Shown: piece by piece, positions 16,321-58,252 of the stretch
Position numbering within the stretch: the first letter of the stretch is position 1
Layout of the letters: each line of letters starts with the position of its first letter
IMG/VR virus record: IMGVR_UViG_3300045970_000382
Coordinates: 92,224 to 156,223 of that record
Direction: 5' to 3' (one strand)
Length of the DNA stretch: 64,000 nt
Origin: a virus
The notes under the pieces: model-generated
Databases searched by the model: none
What the model was told of the DNA's origin: nothing
Seen by the model: the letters and a program-made list of their open reading frames with translations, nothing else
Program-made: the position numbers and the translations under genes

Positions 16321-17055
16321 TTAATCATTAAATTCTACTACACGATTCATTAAAGCAACATATACTCTTGATTCTAATAAATTTTTGTAAAAATTAGCCA
16401 GTCTTTTAAATTCAGTTTCTTTAGCTACTTTATAAGTTAGATATGCTTCTTGTTCTGTTTTGTAAGAACCAAGATATTTATATTTTCCTTTAATACTACA
16501 TTGAGCTATATATGGATTTATATAACGTTCATCATAAGTAACTCCAATACGAAATTCACCTCTATTAGCATTACATTTTTCTAAAACATTATTTATCTCT
16601 TGTGGTACTAAACAACATGTTTCTGGTGAATAGATTTTATTACCTTTAAATAATATATCTTTATCCAATTGCCAATTTAAATCTGAAATCATCATTAGTA
16701 AATAATCGTGACAAAAATTTTGAAAGTTCCACCATCTTTCACAAACAATACATCCAATATAAGATTGTTGTCTTGATTGAGTTTCTAAATCATAACACCT
16801 TCGTAACATTTGAAACCAAACCATATAAATTCTTGGATGTGATGTACGAGAATAATTTCCTACGCCAATATAACCAATTCCAGAAATACTAGGATGATTT
16901 GGATTTTTAACATGACCTCCTCTTAAATTACTTGCTTGACAAATTATTTCAAATCCATTTTCAAATCTAACTTTCACATTTCTTGAATCTATAAATTCTA
17001 TAACAGTACAAGATCCATAATTATCCGTTTTAAAAACATCTCCAATTTTAATCAT
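16321..17055 (-). CDS. HNH/AP2 homing-endonuclease-like protein, copy 4
   Basis: 244 residues, full-length: N-domain (VGDVFKTDNYGS-type opening, VKVRFENG), HNH-like core (CIVCERWWNFQNF, LDKDILFKGNKIYSPETCCLVP), AP2 domain (FRIGVTYDERYINPY..LGSYKTEQEAYLTYK). Its start overlaps the small gene upstream by 8 nt. It lies just above the ligase promoter, so its own transcript ends near the ligase unit. Confidence 0.85.
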   Translation of the reverse strand: MIKIGDVFKTDNYGSCTVIEFIDSRNVKVRFENGFEIICQASNLRGGHVKNPNHPSISGIGYIGVGNYSRTSHPRIYMVWFQMLRRCYDLETQSRQQSYIGCIVCERWWNFQNFCHDYLLMMISDLNWQLDKDILFKGNKIYSPETCCLVPQEINNVLEKCNANRGEFRIGVTYDERYINPYIAQCSIKGKYKYLGSYKTEQEAYLTYKVAKETEFKRLANFYKNLLESRVYVALMNRVVEFND

Positions 17056-21839: not shown

Positions 21840-22574
21840 TCAGTCATCAATATCGACTACGCGATTCATTAGTATTGTATATATTTCAGGATCTAAATCA
21901 TCTTTAAATAAATTACCTAACCTTTTAAATTCAGCTTCTTTAGCTGCTTTATAGGCTAGCCTAGCTTCTTCTTCTGTTTTGTAACTACCAAGGTACTTTA
22001 ATTTTCCTTCAACGTTACAAGCAGCTTTGTATGGATTTGTTTTACTACCAGAAGGAGAAACTCCAATACGAAATTCACCTCTACTAGCATCACTTTTTTC
22101 TAAAACAGTGTTTATCTGAGGTGGAACTAAGCAACAAGTTTCTGGTGAATATAGCTTGTTTCCTTTAATACGAAGATCTTTGTCTATTTGCCAAAATAAA
22201 GCAGATCCAAACATTGATAAGTAATCAGGAGCAAAATTCTGAAAATTCCACCAACGTTCACATACAGTACAAGCACTATAAGTAGGCCATACACCTCTAA
22301 TAGTTTCATTATAACATCTTCGTAACATCTGAATCCAACAATTATAAATTCTTGGATATAATTTACAAGAATAATTTCCAACTCCAATAAATGCAATACC
22401 ATAAATAATTGGATGATTTAGATTCTTAACCTGACCATTTCTTAAAGCGCCAGCATTACAAATTTTTTCAGTCCCATCTTTAAATCTAATTTTTACATTG
22501 TTATAATCTATATATTCCATAACAGTGCAATTACCAGATTTATTTGTTTTGAATACATCACCTATTTTAATCAT
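21840..22574 (-). CDS. HNH/AP2 homing-endonuclease-like protein, copy 5
   Basis: 244 residues, complete: N-domain VGDVFKTNKSG-type opening, HNH-like core (CTVCERWWNFQNF, IDKDLRIKGNKLYSPETCCLVP), AP2 domain (FRIGVSPSGSKTNPY..LGSYKTEEEARLAYK). Its ATG overlaps the stop of the helicase C-part by 4 nt (ATGA type). Another case of insertion precisely at the 3' end of an essential-looking gene. Confidence 0.85.
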   Translation of the reverse strand: MIKIGDVFKTNKSGNCTVMEYIDYNNVKIRFKDGTEKICNAGALRNGQVKNLNHPIIYGIAFIGVGNYSCKLYPRIYNCWIQMLRRCYNETIRGVWPTYSACTVCERWWNFQNFAPDYLSMFGSALFWQIDKDLRIKGNKLYSPETCCLVPPQINTVLEKSDASRGEFRIGVSPSGSKTNPYKAACNVEGKLKYLGSYKTEEEARLAYKAAKEAEFKRLGNLFKDDLDPEIYTILMNRVVDIDD

Positions 22575-32378: not shown

Positions 32379-33113
32379 TTAGTCGTTTGGTTCGACCACA
32401 TAATTTATTAAAGCTAAATACACTTTTAGATCTAACTGATCTTTATAAAAGTTTGCTAATCTTCTAATTTCAGCTTCTTTAGATACTTTATAAGCTAGAT
32501 ATGCTTCTTGTTCTGTTTTGTAATAACCAAGATATTTATTTTTTCCTTTAATACTACATCGAGCTTGATATGGATTTGGTTTACCTTCATAATAAGTAAC
32601 TCCAATACAACATTCACCTCTATTAGCATCACGTTTTATTAAAAGTTTATTTATTTCTTGTGGAAGTAAACAACATGTTTCTGGTGAATATATCTCATTA
32701 TGTTTAAAAAGTATATCTTTATCTAGTTGCCAATCTAAATCTGATCCAAACATTTGTAAATAATCATGAGCAAAGTTTTGAAAATTCCACCATCTTTCAC
32801 AAACAGCACAACCAATATAAGAAGGTTGTTTTAATTGAGTATCTTCGTTATAACATCTTCCTAGCATAGACTTCCAACACTTATAAATTCTTAAATGTGT
32901 TTTAGGAAAATAAATTCCAATTCCAATAAAACCTATATTACAAACACTAGGATGATTTGGATTTTTAACTAGACCATTTCTTAATTGGCTTGCTTGACAA
33001 GTTGTTTCAGTCCCATCATCAAATCTGACTCTTACATCATTACAATCTATATACTTTATAACAATACAAGAACCAGAACTATTCGTTTCAAATCTGTCAC
33101 CTACCTTAATCAT
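32379..33113 (-). CDS. HNH/AP2 homing-endonuclease-like protein, copy 6
   Basis: 244 residues: N-domain MIKVGDRFETNSSGS, HNH-like core (CAVCERWWNFQNF, LDKDILFKHNEIYSPETCCLLP; the usual GN is HN here), AP2 domain (CCIGVTYYEGKPNPY..LGYYKTEQEAYLAYK). Lies 7 nt below a small gene downstream of TROVE. Confidence 0.85.
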   Translation of the reverse strand: MIKVGDRFETNSSGSCIVIKYIDCNDVRVRFDDGTETTCQASQLRNGLVKNPNHPSVCNIGFIGIGIYFPKTHLRIYKCWKSMLGRCYNEDTQLKQPSYIGCAVCERWWNFQNFAHDYLQMFGSDLDWQLDKDILFKHNEIYSPETCCLLPQEINKLLIKRDANRGECCIGVTYYEGKPNPYQARCSIKGKNKYLGYYKTEQEAYLAYKVSKEAEIRRLANFYKDQLDLKVYLALINYVVEPND

Positions 33114-35676: not shown

Positions 35677-35801
35677 GGTTACTGGTGGGACTCGAACCTA
35701 CGACAAACTGTGTTTTGATAATCTAATATCATCAGTTCAAAAGAACAAGATTGAATATTAGTATTTTATGACGGCTGTTCTACCGCTGAACTACAGTAAC
35801 C
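35677..35801 (-). ncRNA. tRNA-like module 2 with hairpin in place of the anticodon arm
   Basis: 8-bp acceptor GGTTACTG / CAGTAACC, canonical D-arm AGTTC-AGCGGTA-GAAC, and T-arm GTAGG-TTCGAGT-CCCAC (one mismatch). Between them the anticodon arm is replaced by ~70 nt dominated by CTAATAT/ATATTAG and GTTC/GAAC stems. No CCA follows. The resemblance to D/T/acceptor arms is too close to be chance; bacterial Y RNAs of the YrlA type carry such tRNA mimics. Confidence 0.7.
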
Positions 35802-38533: not shown

Positions 38534-39268
38534 CTAATCATCAAAATCTACCTTGTAATCAACAAGAGCTTGGTACACCCGTGGATCAAGCTCTTCTTTA
38601 TATAAATTTGCCAATCTTTTAATTTCAGCTTCTTTAGCAGGTTTATATACTAGATATGCTTCTTGTTCTGTTTTGAAACTACCAAGATGTTTTGTTTTTC
38701 CTTCAATATTACAACGGGCTTGGTATGGTTTTGTTCTACCTTCACGGTACGTAACTCCAATACGAAGTTCACCTCTGCTAGCATCACTTTTTGTTAAAAG
38801 ATAATTTATTTTAGATGGAACCAAACAACATGTTTCTCTTGAATATATCTTATTTCTTTTAAATAATATATCTTTGTCTAAATGCCAATCCAAATCTGAA
38901 CCCACCATTAGTAAATAATCATGAGCGAAGTTTTGAAAACTATGCCATCTAATATCTACAGTACATCCAATATAAGTAGGATATTTTCTCTGAATATCTT
39001 CGTTATAACATCTTTGTAGCATACAAATCCAAACCATATAAATCCTTTTATGTGATGTATAAGAATAAATTCCAATTCCAATAAAACCAACACCACTAAA
39101 TTTAAGACTTGGATATTTAACATTTCCATTTCTTAAATTTTGGGCTGTACAAATTTTTTCAGCTCCATCTTCAAATCTAATTCTTACATTATTACAATCT
39201 ATATACTCTATTACAACACAAGAACCATAATTATTTGTTTCAAATCTATCACCAACTTTTATTTGCAT
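38534..39268 (-). CDS. HNH/AP2 homing-endonuclease-like protein, copy 7
   Basis: 244 residues: N-domain IKVGDRFETNNYGS, HNH-like core (CTVDIRWHSFQNF, LDKDILFKRNKIYSRETCCLVP; SRE replaces SPE), AP2 domain (LRIGVTYREGRTKPY..LGSFKTEQEAYLVYK). Convergent with the Ig-like operon; here it marks the border between the two transcription directions. Confidence 0.85.
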   Translation of the reverse strand: MQIKVGDRFETNNYGSCVVIEYIDCNNVRIRFEDGAEKICTAQNLRNGNVKYPSLKFSGVGFIGIGIYSYTSHKRIYMVWICMLQRCYNEDIQRKYPTYIGCTVDIRWHSFQNFAHDYLLMVGSDLDWHLDKDILFKRNKIYSRETCCLVPSKINYLLTKSDASRGELRIGVTYREGRTKPYQARCNIEGKTKHLGSFKTEQEAYLVYKPAKEAEIKRLANLYKEELDPRVYQALVDYKVDFDD

Positions 39269-42412: not shown

Positions 42413-42931
42413 TTAATTTGGTACTCCTCTTAAACCATATAATTCTACTCTTTTACCCCAAACTTTTTTATTATTTTGTTTTTGTTCTTCAGTTCTTTTC
42501 TTTCCTTTATTAGCTTCAGATATTTTTTGTTTGTGTTCTGGAGTCTGTTTTTTACCTAAACAATATGTATTTCCTTTCTTTAATTCAGATATTTTTTTCT
42601 TAGTTTTTTCTGAACAGATGCATACTTCACCGCCTGTAGTAAGATTATATCCATTAGGAAATAAAGCATTGTAATATTCTATATAATATTGTTCTTTTAT
42701 TTGTGCTTCTTTTAAAGTAAGATTTTCTTCTAATATGTTATGTTCAAAAAGAATCCAACTATATTTTTTAATAGCGGATGCAAACCTGGTCTTACTCTTT
42801 GCCAATTTATGTTCATAACATCTTCGTTTATAACGCTTCGTAATTCCTATATAACATTTACCAGATGGTGATCTATGCATGTAAACTATATAATCTCTAA
42901 TAGTCTTTATCCTTTTTCTAAAAATTTCCAT
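42413..42931 (-). CDS. GIY-YIG homing endonuclease, copy 1
   Basis: 172 residues. GIY-YIG core: DYIVYMHRSPSGKCYIGITKRYKRRCYEH with the catalytic Arg in the following helix and Glu in LKEAQIKEQYYIEYYN. C-terminal NUMOD-type DNA-binding repeats (SEKTKKKISELKKGN, TPEHKQKISEANKGK, TEEQKQNNKKVWGKR). Paralogous to 61372-62076 and 63217-63825. Directly preceded by kissing-loop leader K1. Confidence 0.88.
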   Translation of the reverse strand: MEIFRKRIKTIRDYIVYMHRSPSGKCYIGITKRYKRRCYEHKLAKSKTRFASAIKKYSWILFEHNILEENLTLKEAQIKEQYYIEYYNALFPNGYNLTTGGEVCICSEKTKKKISELKKGNTYCLGKKQTPEHKQKISEANKGKKRTEEQKQNNKKVWGKRVELYGLRGVPN

Positions 42932-42951
42932 AATTAGATTCCTTCAAACAT

Positions 42952-43060
42952 AAAAAAGCCCAGCACCAGAATATAGTTGCGATATATTCTTAGAACTAGG
43001 CTTAGTAATAGCTGGATTACAGACTATTCAAATTAATATCGCAACTATAATTTGAATAAA
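42952..43060 (-). ncRNA. Kissing-loop leader RNA K1 (two hairpins, terminator)
   Basis: Minus strand: hairpin 1 has a perfect 10-bp stem TATTCAAATT/AATTTGAATA (43049-43058 with 43025-43034). A linker containing TATTACTAA follows, then hairpin 2, whose inner stem AGAATATA/TATATTCT holds a 7-nt loop TCGCAAC, an outer AGCC/GGCT stem and TTTTTT. The loops are complementary over up to 13 nt (43036-43048 with 42973-42985). It ends 20 nt before the GIY-YIG start. Confidence 0.8.
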
Positions 43061-43121
43061 CTATTCCAGTTTAAACTATTTTTAGTAATTGTAAAGAGTT
43101 TATTTTCAAGATATTTTAGAC

Positions 43122-43149
43122 AAAAAAAGCCCCAATACGTTTTTGGGGC
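43122..43149 (-). terminator. Rho-independent terminator after HNH/AP2 copy 8
   Basis: Minus strand GCCCCAA-AAACGTA-TTGGGGC hairpin followed by seven T. Separates the HNH/AP2 copy 8 operon from leader K1. Confidence 0.9.
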
Positions 43150-43219
43150 CGAAGAAGCCTAACATGGGAAGTAGGAATATGTTAATTATACCACCCATTT
43201 AATATGGGTGCAACATAAA

Positions 43220-43954
43220 TCAGTCATCAATTTCAACCTCATAATTCATTAAAGCTATATAAACTCTTGGATCTAATAAATCTTTGTAAAAATCAGCCAA
43301 TCGTTTTATTTCAGTCTCTTTAGCTATTTTGTAAGCTTGGTATGCTTCTTCTTGTGTTTTGAAATAACCAAGATTTTTATTTTTTCCTTTAATACTACAT
43401 TGAGACATATAAGGTTTTAATTTACCTTCAATATAAGTTACTCCAATCAATAATTCACCTCTACAAGATTCTTTTTTTATTAAAACCGAGTTTATTTGAG
43501 ATGGAACTAAACAACATTTTTCTGGTGAATAAACCTTATTATGTTTAAAAAGAATATCTTTATCCAGTTGCCAGCCTAAGTCTGAACCATACATTAATAA
43601 ATAATCGTGGACATAATTCTGAAAATTATACCATCTAATATCTACAGTACATCCAATATAGGTAGTATGTTTTAACTGGACATTTTCGTTATAACATCTT
43701 TTTAACATATTTCCCCAACAATTAGAAATTCTTGGATGTGATATTTTTGAATAAATTCCAATTCCAACAAAACCAACACCACAAACAATTGGATGATTTG
43801 GATTTTTAACATTTCCTCTTCTTAAATCACCCGCTCTGCAAGACATTTCATAACCATCTTCAAATCTAACTCTTATATTATTCCAACTAATATACTCTAT
43901 AACAGTACAAAAACCAGATTTAGTTGTTTCAAATCTATCTCCAACTTTTATCAT
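43220..43954 (-). CDS. HNH/AP2 homing-endonuclease-like protein, copy 8
   Basis: 244 residues: N-domain MIKVGDRFETTKSG, HNH-like core (CTVDIRWYNFQNY, LDKDILFKHNKVYSPEKCCLVP), AP2 domain (LLIGVTYIEGKLKPY..LGYFKTQEEAYQAYK). Start overlaps the upstream stop by 4 nt (ATGA); followed by a strong terminator. Confidence 0.85.
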   Translation of the reverse strand: MIKVGDRFETTKSGFCTVIEYISWNNIRVRFEDGYEMSCRAGDLRRGNVKNPNHPIVCGVGFVGIGIYSKISHPRISNCWGNMLKRCYNENVQLKHTTYIGCTVDIRWYNFQNYVHDYLLMYGSDLGWQLDKDILFKHNKVYSPEKCCLVPSQINSVLIKKESCRGELLIGVTYIEGKLKPYMSQCSIKGKNKNLGYFKTQEEAYQAYKIAKETEIKRLADFYKDLLDPRVYIALMNYEVEIDD

Positions 43955-50078: not shown

Positions 50079-50266
50079 CAGGTTACGAGTTACAGTCTGT
50101 TTTAAAAGCCTATGTCACCTTACTTGAAGGAGAAAATCCGTTTGAACTAAATCTCTTTAAGCCGAGCATCACTGTGAAGGAAGCAACAGAGATGATGGAG
50201 TTACTACCTAAAGTACGGGAATATTTAGCAAAAAATAAAGTTAGGAAGCCTATGACTTCATCTTGA
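50075..50266 (+). CDS. Small helical protein of unknown function
   Basis: 63 residues (MTGYELQSVLKAYVTLLEGE..). ATGA overlap with the preceding stop. Ends in the -35 region of the next promoter. No family recognised. Confidence 0.55.
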   Translation: MTGYELQSVLKAYVTLLEGENPFELNLFKPSITVKEATEMMELLPKVREYLAKNKVRKPMTSS

Positions 50267-50291
50267 CATTGTATAAAATAGCGTATATAAT
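50263..50291 (+). promoter_or_regulatory. Strong promoter driving leader K2 and HNH/AP2 copy 9
   Basis: TTGACA (50263-50268), 17 nt, TATAAT (50286-50291): consensus at both boxes. Confidence 0.88.
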
Positions 50292-50293
50292 TA

Positions 50294-50402
50294 AGATGTT
50301 ATTGGCGTACTATGAGTAAGATATTAAGCCAATAACATCTGTGTTATTACTGAAACCCAGCTCTAGTGTACTTACTCTACATTATCTGGGTTTCTTTTAT
50401 TT
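50294..50402 (+). ncRNA. Kissing-loop leader RNA K2 (two hairpins, terminator)
   Basis: Hairpin 1: 13-bp stem AGATGTTATTGGC/GCCAATAACATCT with GAGTAAG (50314-50320) at its apex. Linker TGTGTTATTACT. Hairpin 2: GAAACCCAG/CTGGGTTTC with inner TAGTGTA/TACATTA stem and 7-nt loop CTTACTC (50371-50377), then TTTTATTT. The two loops are exact complements over 7 nt. Ends 12 nt before the start of HNH/AP2 copy 9. Confidence 0.85.
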
Positions 50403-50414
50403 AGGTTTAAAAAG

Positions 50415-51155
50415 ATGAAAACTATATCAAGAGGAGATGTTTTTGAAACGAACATATCTGGTTTTTGTACTGTTGTAGAGTATATAGATTCACGAAATGT
50501 GAAAGTTAGATTTGAAGATGGATTTGAAACAATTTGTCAATCTGGTCAATTAAGAAATGGTCAGGTTAAGAATCCAAATAATCCAATTATTTATGGTGTT
50601 GGTTTTATAGGAGTTGGAAATTATTCTCATAAATCACATCCAAGAATTTATTACTGTTGGAGGGACATGATAGGAAGATGTTATCACAAAGTTACTCAAT
50701 TAAAACATCGATCTTATATTGGTTGTACTGTATGTGAAAGATGGTGGAATTTTCAAAATTTTTGTTATGATTACTTGATAATGGTAGGTTCAGATTTAAA
50801 TTATCATTTAGATAAAGATTTATTATTTAAAGGAAATAAGATATATTCACCAGAAACATGTTGCTTAGTTCCACGTCAAGTAAATAACGTTTTAGAAAAA
50901 TGTGATGCTAATAGAGGTGAATGTTGTATTGGAGTTAATTACTATGAAGATAAAATAAATCCATACAAAGCTACTTGTAACGTTGAAGGAAAACAAAAAT
51001 ATCTTGGTATTTACAAAACAGAACAAGAAGCACGACAAGTCTATAAAGTAGCTAAAGAAGCTGAATTTAAAAGACTGGCTAATTTATACAAAGATACATT
51101 AGATTCAAGAGCTTATATAGCTTTAATGAATCGCACGGTTGATGAAGATGATTAG
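50415..51155 (+). CDS. HNH/AP2 homing-endonuclease-like protein, copy 9
   Basis: 246 residues, the only plus-strand copy: N-domain ISRGDVFETNISG, HNH-like core (CTVCERWWNFQNF, LDKDLLFKGNKIYSPETCCLVP), AP2 domain (CCIGVNYYEDKINPY..LGIYKTEQEARQVYK). Unlike the others it has its own strong promoter and a structured attenuator-like leader (K2). Confidence 0.87.
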   Translation: MKTISRGDVFETNISGFCTVVEYIDSRNVKVRFEDGFETICQSGQLRNGQVKNPNNPIIYGVGFIGVGNYSHKSHPRIYYCWRDMIGRCYHKVTQLKHRSYIGCTVCERWWNFQNFCYDYLIMVGSDLNYHLDKDLLFKGNKIYSPETCCLVPRQVNNVLEKCDANRGECCIGVNYYEDKINPYKATCNVEGKQKYLGIYKTEQEARQVYKVAKEAEFKRLANLYKDTLDSRAYIALMNRTVDEDD

Positions 51156-57168: not shown

Positions 57169-57197
57169 TTGACAGATATAAGAGAAGTTTATATAAT
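57169..57197 (+). promoter_or_regulatory. Strong promoter driving leader K3
   Basis: TTGACA (57169-57174), 17 nt, TATAAT (57192-57197). Confidence 0.87.
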
Positions 57198-57205
57198 GAC
57201 AGACA

Positions 57206-57320
57206 GTTATTGAAATAGGAGAAAGTTGGAGCTCCAATAATTTCAATAACTTAAAAAGTTATTACTGAACCCTTGCTTTTAGATCGTACTCCAACACGAT
57301 CTATTTCAAGGGTTCTTTTA
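57206..57320 (+). ncRNA. Kissing-loop leader RNA K3 (two hairpins, terminator)
   Basis: Hairpin 1: 11-bp stem GTTATTGAAAT/ATTTCAATAAC with GTTGGAG (57225-57231) in its apical part. Linker AAAAAGTTATTACT. Hairpin 2: GAACCCTTG/CAAGGGTTC with inner AGATCGT/ACGATCT stem and loop ACTCCAAC; CTCCAAC (57289-57295) is the exact complement of GTTGGAG. TTTTAC follows. Ends 13 nt before the ATG at 57334. Confidence 0.85.
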
Positions 57321-57333
57321 CGAGGAAAAGAAG

Positions 57334-57531
57334 ATGAATTTAACAAAAAGAACAAGAACAGAATTCTTAGTCAAAATAGAAGAACGAAGAATTGATAAGA
57401 AATTAATCCCTACCATCAATGCTAGAGACTTGTGGAGCAAATTAAGAAGTAAACAACATTTTTCAGATTGGATTAAAAACAGAATAGACAAGTATGATTT
57501 CGTAAAAGGAGTTGATTATGGAATTAATTAA
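57334..57531 (+). CDS. AntA/AntB-type antirepressor N-domain, short
   Basis: 65 residues. PTINARDLWSKLRSKQHFSDWIKNRIDKYDFVKGVDY is the AntA/AntB antirepressor motif (ARDL..L..kq.FsdWI..RI..y.F..G.Dy). Full antirepressors carry a further C-terminal domain; here the frame ends right after the motif, inside the next gene's start. May be a natural small regulator or a truncated antirepressor. Confidence 0.75.
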   Translation: MNLTKRTRTEFLVKIEERRIDKKLIPTINARDLWSKLRSKQHFSDWIKNRIDKYDFVKGVDYGIN

Positions 57532-58252
57532 GAGAACCAAAACTGATAAGAGGACATTTGAGTCCTTAAATTATAAGAAGTATGATGGATATGGGTATAT
57601 TTACATTATTGAGTTTGAATCAGGAGCTATAAAGGTAGGAATGACAACAAATTTTAACCAGAGATTAAAAACACATAGAACTACATTGGGAAGAGTATCT
57701 CCTGTTTTACGTTTTTGGGTATCAGTTTTACATAGTAATTATTTGGAAAATGAGAAAGAGTTAATAGAGTTTATTTCTTATGACGAAAGATCAGAAGTGA
57801 CTTTCAAATCTTCTTTTGACGTTGTTAGACGTGAAGCTGAATTACTTGATTTTGAACAGGAAAGTAGATTACAATATTTAATGAGAGTAGATACAGCGAT
57901 AGAATCAAAACCAAAAGATATTATAAGTTACTTAGATTACATTAGTTCTGATTTCAGTAATCATGTAGCAATTTCAGAATGGTTAGTGGAGGAATCTAAT
58001 TCTAAAGATTTGAAACAATTAAAAATGGATTTATTTTTAGTAATGGATAATGATCTATATTCATATTTAGATAATTACTTTTTGGATCTTTGTTCTGATA
58101 ACGGAGGAGGTATAAATTTAGTAGGTAAAGGATGGAATAAAGAAGATAAAGATCCTGTAATTTTTAATATGTACCCAAAAGATTTATTAGATGATATTAT
58201 TCCAGAAATAAGACCTATTGTAAATTATAGGTTGAGACAGGTAACTTCGTAA
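57518..58252 (+). CDS. T5orf172/GIY-YIG-like domain protein
   Basis: 244 residues from the ATG at 57518-57520, with AAAGGA 7 nt upstream; a TTG two codons earlier is less likely. The N-terminal MELIKR matches the start of the two GIY-YIG genes at 61372 and 63217. GYIYIIEFESGAIKVGMTTNFNQRLKTH is a T5orf172 (GIY-YIG-related) domain often fused to antirepressors. The C-terminal ~130 residues are acidic and unassigned. Overlaps the AntA gene by 14 nt. Confidence 0.75.
   Translation: MELIKRTKTDKRTFESLNYKKYDGYGYIYIIEFESGAIKVGMTTNFNQRLKTHRTTLGRVSPVLRFWVSVLHSNYLENEKELIEFISYDERSEVTFKSSFDVVRREAELLDFEQESRLQYLMRVDTAIESKPKDIISYLDYISSDFSNHVAISEWLVEESNSKDLKQLKMDLFLVMDNDLYSYLDNYFLDLCSDNGGGINLVGKGWNKEDKDPVIFNMYPKDLLDDIIPEIRPIVNYRLRQVTS

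What the first reader, a model, noticed from the sequence alone, without database searches (positions are those of the whole stretch)
50294..50402. Loop-loop covariation across three leaders: K2 (GAGTAAG/CTTACTC) versus K1 and K3
The three elements keep architecture and linker (GTTATTACTGAA.CCC in K2 and K3) but change loop sequence: GTTGCGA/TCGCAAC, GAGTAAG/CTTACTC, GTTGGAG/CTCCAAC. Every pair is an exact 7-nt complement. Three independent loop sequences all preserving complementarity is strong evidence for a kissing interaction, and the differing loop pairs would prevent cross-talk between copies. Placement 12-20 nt before ORFs of three different mobile or regulatory families suggests a portable control element that tunes expression of selfish genes.
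Basis: partly seen in the sequence, partly recalled or inferred. Interest (0 to 1): 0.9.

Follow-up and report, generated by a model that had tools for sequence, protein, structure and literature searches.

The report
Kissing-loop terminator leaders in phages
Three short RNA leaders in this phage, and two relatives in unrelated phage contigs, each fold into two hairpins whose loops match each other exactly and sit between a promoter and an inserted gene (a homing nuclease or a DNA-modifying enzyme), which points to an uncatalogued kind of RNA control element carried by phage accessory genes.

Summary
K1, K2 and K3 are real paralogous elements: sigma70-type promoter, hairpin 1, conserved linker GYTATTACTRA, bipartite hairpin 2 with a 7-8-nt apical loop and a T-run, then an ORF 12-20 nt on. 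The loop of hairpin 2 is complementary to the loop of hairpin 1 in all three. Of 283 terminator-like hairpins in the 156-kb genome, only these three show a full 7-nt loop match about 40 nt upstream; none of 1,230 in other sequences do.
A relaxed pattern scan of IMG/VR found two true homologues in unrelated contigs, with new loop pairs (GTTCAG/CTGAAC; GCGGCAAC/GTTGCCGC). Across the five, 98% of proposed pairs form and all seven kissing pairs change on both sides. No Rfam family matches. All five also allow a second, mutually exclusive hairpin (hairpin 1's 3' arm with the linker), so the leader may be a switch.
Downstream genes: GIY-YIG and HNH homing endonucleases, a truncated antirepressor plus GIY-YIG gene, a helicase/methyltransferase cassette that splits a portal gene, and a Dam methyltransferase.
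Best reading: a portable transcription-attenuation leader whose terminator is coupled to an upstream hairpin by a kissing interaction. Structure is well supported; function, direction and trigger are inferred.

The parts
50263..50291 (+). K2 promoter TTGACA-17-TATAAT (12/12), ending 2 nt before hairpin 1
50294..50340 (+). K2 hairpin 1: 13-bp stem AGATGTTATTGGC/GCCAATAACATCT; kissing 7-mer GAGTAAG at 50314-50320
50341..50351 (+). K2 linker GTGTTATTACT; its GTTATT can pair with AATAAC of hairpin 1's 3' arm (alternative 7-bp hairpin)
50352..50394 (+). K2 hairpin 2: outer 9-bp stem GAAACCCAG/CTGGGTTTC, internal loop, inner 7-bp stem, apical loop CTTACTC (50371-50377)
50395..50402 (+). K2 T-rich tail TTTTATTT of the terminator-like hairpin
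50415..51155 (+). HNH homing endonuclease family protein (246 aa, phrog_953) behind K2
57169..57197 (+). K3 promoter TTGACA-17-TATAAT (12/12)
57205..57251 (+). K3 hairpin 1: AGTTATTGAAAT/ATTTCAATAACT; kissing 7-mer GTTGGAG at 57225-57231
57252..57266 (+). K3 linker TAAAAAGTTATTACT (alternative 8-bp hairpin with hairpin 1's 3' arm)
57267..57320 (+). K3 hairpin 2 (57267-57315), apical loop ACTCCAAC (57288-57295), then TTTTA
57334..57531 (+). Truncated AntA antirepressor ORF (65 aa; only the first part of the 68-position Pfam domain)
57512..58252 (+). T5orf172/GIY-YIG protein overlapping the AntA fragment
43068..43095 (-). K1 promoter-like TTTACA-16-TAAACT (9/12, weak)
   Evidence: read
43024..43059 (-). 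K1 hairpin 1: TTATTCAAATTA/TAATTTGAATAG; kissing 7-mer GTTGCGA at 43045-43039
43004..43012 (-). K1 linker GCTATTACT (alternative hairpin with AATAG of hairpin 1)
42950..43003 (-). K1 hairpin 2 (43003-42956), 7-nt apical loop TCGCAAC (42982-42976), then T-run
42413..42931 (-). GIY-YIG + NUMOD3 homing endonuclease (172 aa) behind K1
43128..43150 (-). Intrinsic terminator just upstream of K1, closing the preceding HNH gene (43220-43954)

Best explanation
The K elements are members of one family of cis-acting RNA leaders in phages: a promoter followed by a roughly 105-120-nt leader that ends in an intrinsic terminator a few nucleotides before the ribosome-binding site of an accessory gene. Shown by sequence and covariation: hairpin 1 begins 2-8 nt after the -10 box; hairpin 2 is a bipartite terminator-type hairpin (GC-rich outer stem, internal loop, AU-rich inner stem) with a T-run; the apical loop of hairpin 2 can pair with the loop of hairpin 1 (6-8 bp); and hairpin 1's 3' arm can pair instead with the linker. 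Inferred: most transcripts stop at hairpin 2, because the kissing contact nucleates and holds the weak inner stem and so favours the terminator; when hairpin 1 is dismantled through the alternative 3'-arm/linker hairpin, loop 1 is no longer presented, the kissing is lost and read-through into the nuclease or methyltransferase gene rises. The signal that flips it, and the direction (kissing promotes rather than delays termination), are not known.
For: Promoter and terminator-like hairpin flank the leader, with no room for another promoter before the ATG 12-20 nt on. Kissing helix: 5 members, 7 of 7 pairs with changes on both sides, 97% of cells paired; slid controls over all helices give 31-45%. 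Genome-wide uniqueness. Homologues L117 and L114 in unrelated contigs keep promoter-type sequence, hairpin 1, linker, terminator-type hairpin 2, T-run and ORF spacing with new loop pairs. Alternative hairpin possible in all five, one pair A-U in three and G-C in two. In L117 the leader opens a cassette with its own terminator that splits the portal gene's InPase domain (profile 14-67 before, 75-134 after), so the leader appears to travel with an inserted unit. Precedent: in corrinoid riboswitches a kissing loop stabilises stem P13, which contains an internal loop, and so controls a terminator (PMC10653944).
Against: No expression data. Hairpin 1 is much more stable than the alternative hairpin in K2, K3 and L117 (for example -12.9 against -2.6 kcal/mol in L117), so a spontaneous switch is unlikely without a factor. 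The single covarying pair of the alternative hairpin is weak evidence (55 of 500 shuffles reach it), and the alternative hairpin of L117 is not unusual against shuffles. The two hairpins with full kissing are nearly rod-like, and an 11-15-nt linker needs a sharp bend, so intramolecular kissing is not guaranteed (geometry estimate, not modelled). The promoter is weak in K1 and has only a -10 box in L114.
Confidence: 0.58

Rival explanations
1. The leader is mainly a free small RNA made in large amounts from a strong promoter and a strong terminator (layout as in AbiF/type III toxin-antitoxin loci); the downstream gene is expressed only by leaky read-through, and the RNA acts in trans, for example by binding the downstream protein.
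For: Identical gene order (promoter, about 100-nt structured RNA, terminator, RBS, gene) to C. difficile RCd22-abiF (PMC12373285). Perfect promoters in K2 and K3.
Against: Downstream proteins are of unrelated families, so one RNA fold binding them all is unlikely; no abiF motif or repeats; no AbiF/ToxN-type protein.
Confidence: 0.2
2. The loops kiss between two molecules rather than within one: released leader RNAs pair with nascent leaders (or dimerise) and so feed back on termination, with the different loop pairs keeping the three copies apart.
For: Loops are exact 6-8-nt complements, as in plasmid antisense systems; loop sequences differ among the three copies of one genome, as orthogonality would require. 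Geometry disfavours the intramolecular form.
Against: The intramolecular partner is at very high local concentration; spacing between the partner loops is nearly constant within this genome (7-mer 38-42 nt upstream of hairpin 2), as expected for a cis contact. L117 and L114 show a single copy in the sequence searched, so cross-talk between copies cannot be the only reason for loop change.
Confidence: 0.12
3. The leader is a fixed part of a DNA-level mobile unit (a recombination or insertion end of moron or homing-endonuclease cassettes), and the hairpins are recognised as DNA.
For: The leader lies at the 5' edge of an inserted cassette in L117 and ahead of homing endonucleases here.
Against: Fixed orientation relative to promoter, T-run and RBS fits RNA; loop-loop covariation has no obvious DNA role; no matching 3' copy was found in the genome; relatives of the L117 helicase gene lack the leader.
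Confidence: 0.05
4. Ordinary terminators next to unrelated hairpins; the loop matches are chance.
For: Terminators and hairpins are common in an AT-rich genome (283 candidates).
Against: 3 of 283 here and 0 of 1,230 elsewhere with full-loop complementarity in an upstream loop, plus two independent homologues.
Confidence: 0.02

Closest known systems
Corrinoid (cobalamin) riboswitch L5-L13 kissing loop with terminator (P. megaterium metE; PMC10653944)
   Same: Upstream loop kisses the loop of a regulatory hairpin that contains a destabilising internal loop; the contact decides termination.
   Different: No aptamer or ligand-binding core in the K leaders; the kissing hairpin is itself the terminator; 6-8 full pairs; about 110 nt in all; Rfam models do not match.
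AbiF / type III toxin-antitoxin RNA loci (RCd22, Rfam RF03085; PMC12373285)
   Same: Promoter, structured about 100-nt RNA, intrinsic terminator, then RBS and gene with no second promoter.
   Different: No abiF motif or repeats; the downstream genes are not Abi/ToxN toxins and differ from copy to copy.
RNA control of T4-type homing endonucleases (I-TevI, segB, Aeh1 mobE hairpins; mobE/segF terminators; PMC2988022)
   Same: Homing-endonuclease expression limited by RNA hairpins or by terminators near the start of the gene.
   Different: Those hairpins hide the RBS or lie in the coding region, and T4 endonuclease promoters are middle or late; here a consensus sigma70 promoter and a kissing double hairpin with terminator precede the RBS.
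Guanidine-II riboswitch (two hairpins joined by loop-loop contact)
   Same: Two adjacent hairpins that kiss (found).
   Different: Its loops are short and conserved (from own knowledge); K loops are long and freely variable. No Rfam match.
P1/P22 C4 antisense RNA upstream of ant
   Same: Double-hairpin RNA co-transcribed ahead of an antirepressor gene (from own knowledge; K3 precedes an AntA fragment).
   Different: C4 loops pair with the ant leader (own knowledge); K loops pair with each other; no match to the C4 Rfam model.

Membership tests
Any Rfam 15 family | Score at or above the family's gathering threshold | tested here: not met
   best scores far below threshold (for example RAGATH-34 19.6 against 60.7; trpB 21.5 against 59).
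Corrinoid riboswitch | Cobalamin aptamer core | tested here: not met
   No match to any Rfam model; the leader holds only two hairpins.
Corrinoid riboswitch | Kissing loop between an upstream loop and a regulatory hairpin | tested here: met
   Covariation of all 7 kissing pairs across five members; works alike, not a member.
Type III TA / AbiF | Promoter, structured RNA, terminator, gene without its own promoter | tested here: met
   promoter weak in K1 and only a -10 box in L114.
Type III TA / AbiF | Abi/ToxN-family protein downstream and abiF motif or repeats | tested here: not met
   Rfam.
Intrinsic transcription attenuator leader | Terminator hairpin with T-run between promoter and RBS | tested here: met
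Intrinsic transcription attenuator leader | Mutually exclusive alternative structure | tested here: inconclusive
   Hairpin 1 3' arm/linker hairpin possible in all five, one covarying pair; it excludes hairpin 1, not the terminator.
Intrinsic transcription attenuator leader | Regulated read-through | not testable with these tools
   Needs expression experiments.
T4-type RBS-sequestering HEG hairpin | RBS within the hairpin | tested here: not met
   RBS lies downstream of the hairpin 2 T-run in K1-K3.

The most novel reading that the evidence does not exclude
A previously undescribed class of conditional RNA switch, spread among unrelated phages on accessory-gene cassettes: a three-strand switch (two GYTATT copies competing for one AATARC) decides whether hairpin 1 can kiss and lock a bipartite terminator, with loop pairs that diverge so that each copy works privately.
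Probability: 0.3. Interest if true: 0.78.

Novelty: new variant of a known kind. Interest (0 to 1): 0.64.

Why it matters
How phage homing endonucleases and 'moron' genes keep their cost low while moving between genomes is an open question; most known controls are host- or phage-specific. A compact leader that brings its own promoter and a terminator tied to an upstream hairpin, and that sits ahead of unrelated genes in unrelated phages, would be a general solution. The covariation makes it directly testable with loop swaps in a reporter. It would also add an RNA family to the catalogues and, with freely replaceable 7-nt loops, offer a set of separate attenuators for gene-circuit work.

Tried and rejected
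Exact linker patterns (GTTATTACTGAANCC..GGGTT; CAATAAC..TTATTACTGAA) in viral contigs gave only the same genome (IMGVR_UViG_3300045971_000438, 100% identical to this record over the roughly 60 kb compared) plus chance hits, nearly all apparently in coding sequence; the first pattern in 84,980 bacterial/archaeal species genomes gave 24 hits, none with the full architecture. Only the relaxed pattern found the homologues; its other four new hits are chance. Relatives of the K1, K2 and K3 proteins in IMG/VR, other than copies in this same genome, were few and distant. blastn of K1-K3 against phages, and of K2 against plasmids, found no homologue; the Staphylococcus phage hit to K2 was inspected and has no kissing hairpins. 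CM searches of 28 genomes and phage records, then of 369 gammaproteobacterial genomes, gave only terminators or hairpins without kissing loops among the best hits inspected; a pattern for the CTATT-type linker had no match in those 369 genomes. Rfam low-score matches rejected as chance. Phi29 pRNA considered (kissing loops, covarying; own knowledge) but dropped: no three-way junction and a different terminase. Leader-peptide attenuation considered: no conserved short ORF with an SD. The idea that the leader belongs to the HNH gene was rejected: 10 of 11 full-length HNH copies lack it.

Full report
WHAT IS THERE. The window is part (92,224-156,223) of a 156,223-bp virus record. K2, K3 and K1 were read directly. 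Each has the same order: a sigma70-type promoter; hairpin 1 starting within about 8 nt of the -10 box; a linker GTTATTACTGAA (K2, K3) or GCTATTACTAAG (K1); hairpin 2, built of an outer GC-rich 9-bp stem, an internal loop, an inner AU-rich stem and a 7-8-nt apical loop; a T-run; an ATG 12-20 nt further on. In all three the apical loop of hairpin 2 contains (in K1 and K2 is exactly) the reverse complement of a 7-mer in the loop of hairpin 1. RNA folds give -38 to -39 kcal/mol, z -4.9 to -6.9. K2 and K3 have 12/12 promoters, two of three such sites in the whole record; K1's is weak.

IS IT MORE THAN CHANCE. Shuffling loop 1 reproduces the complement with frequency 2e-4 to 2e-3 per element. A scan of the entire record for terminator-like hairpins gave 283; only K1, K2 and K3 have a 7-8-nt apical loop with a full 7-nt complement, and in all three it lies 38-42 nt upstream. 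The same scan of 1.3 Mb of other sequence (both strands) gave 1,230 hairpins and no comparable case. A stricter double-hairpin scan also singles out the three.

HOMOLOGUES ELSEWHERE. Patterns based on the K2/K3 linker found only a second IMG/VR record that is 100% identical over about 60 kb and so is the same genome. A relaxed pattern built on what all three share found two more members in contigs with different phage genes. L117 (IMGVR_UViG_3300020045_009774): TTGACA-16-TATTAT with extended -10 (11/12), hairpin 1 GCGTTATTGAA.., linker GTTATTACTAA, hairpin 2 CCCCG..CGGGG + T7, loop pair GTTCAG/CTGAAC. L114 (IMGVR_UViG_3300035701_001789): -10 TATAAT but no clear -35, linker GCTATTACTAA, hairpin 2 CCCATA..TATGGGT + T7, loop pair GCGGCAAC/GTTGCCGC (8 nt). 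On a hand-cut core alignment of the five (A7), 98.1% of cells pair; 24 of 31 pairs, and 7 of 7 kissing pairs, change on both sides; slid controls give 31-45% paired. The cores were cut by me to fit the structure, which favours it; the double-sided changes in the loops are visible in the raw sequences as well. Two earlier core alignments (A5, A6) had the L114 loop off register and give lower figures. The family is not in Rfam.

A SECOND FOLD. In all five members the 3' arm of hairpin 1 (AATAR) can also pair with the linker (YTATT), a few nt away: 7 bp, 8 bp, 5+3 bp, 6 bp and 6 bp. Column 23/25 is A-U in K2, K3 and L117 and G-C in K1 and L114. In K1 the hairpin-1 pair at that column is only U-G while the linker pair is C-G. 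This suggests, but does not prove, a three-strand switch: two GYTATT copies competing for one AATARC. Hairpin 1 wins on paper (K2, K3, L117), so a factor or kinetic control would be needed. In K1 the 14-nt complement can also form a long helix during transcription that breaks hairpin 1 and delays hairpin 2 (prefix folds).

WHAT FOLLOWS IT. K1: GIY-YIG + NUMOD3 homing endonuclease. K2: HNH endonuclease of phrog_953, one of 11 full-length copies in this genome and the only one with the leader. K3: a truncated AntA antirepressor ORF overlapping a T5orf172/GIY-YIG gene. L117: helicase, N6/N4 methyltransferase and a small membrane-type ORF closed by a terminator; this cassette splits the InPase domain of the portal gene (profile 14-67 before, 75-134 after), and relatives of the helicase at 67-75% identity lack the leader. 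L114: Dam methyltransferase and a nuclease-like ORF (own reading, no Pfam match), after a 68-aa ORF that resembles the start of a ParB-like gene (own reading; no Pfam match). So the leader is modular: one RNA ahead of unrelated DNA-acting accessory genes in unrelated phages.

MECHANISM. A terminator between a promoter and an ATG only 12-20 nt on should limit that gene. The kissing ties the terminator to hairpin 1. By analogy with corrinoid riboswitches, where a kissing loop stabilises a stem that contains an internal loop and so sets termination (PMC10653944), I take kissing to favour hairpin 2 and termination; disassembly of hairpin 1 would raise read-through. The opposite sign (kissing on the nascent loop delays closure of hairpin 2) is not excluded. 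A trans-acting RNA, as in AbiF loci with the same gene order (PMC12373285), and intermolecular kissing remain rivals. Known control of homing endonucleases uses RBS-hiding hairpins and terminators, with middle or late promoters in T4 (PMC2988022); this differs.

LIMITS. The literature library holds open-licence papers only; no paper describing this element was found.

Noticed in passing
window 16321-17055, 21840-22574, 32379-33113, 38534-39268, 43220-43954, 50415-51155 and other sites in the 156-kb record: Eleven full-length HNH endonuclease genes (phrog_953; the four compared are 61-66% identical to the K2 protein) plus fragments: a strong expansion of one homing-endonuclease family in one phage.
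   Followed up: partly
window 57334-57531 / 57512-58252: AntA domain truncated by a stop (profile 1-42 of 68) and overlapping a T5orf172/GIY-YIG ORF in another frame; possibly an antirepressor broken by a nuclease gene or a frameshifted fusion.
   Followed up: partly
L117:2161-7088: A 2.8-kb cassette (K-type leader, helicase, methyltransferase, small ORF, terminator) splits the InPase domain of a portal gene; the 3' part has acquired its own start.
   Followed up: partly
L114:1570-1776: A 68-aa ORF resembling the start of a ParB-like gene ends inside the K-type leader, which suggests insertion into that gene.
   Followed up: no
window 35677-35800 (-): tRNA match 124 nt long for a 71-position model, suggesting a large insert in a tRNA gene.
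   Followed up: no
L012:3730, L014:2026, L083:4010: A shared sequence with a hairpin immediately after GTTATTACTGAACCC that, read on the other strand, sits just before an SD and ATG; no kissing partner, taken as coincidence.
   Followed up: partly
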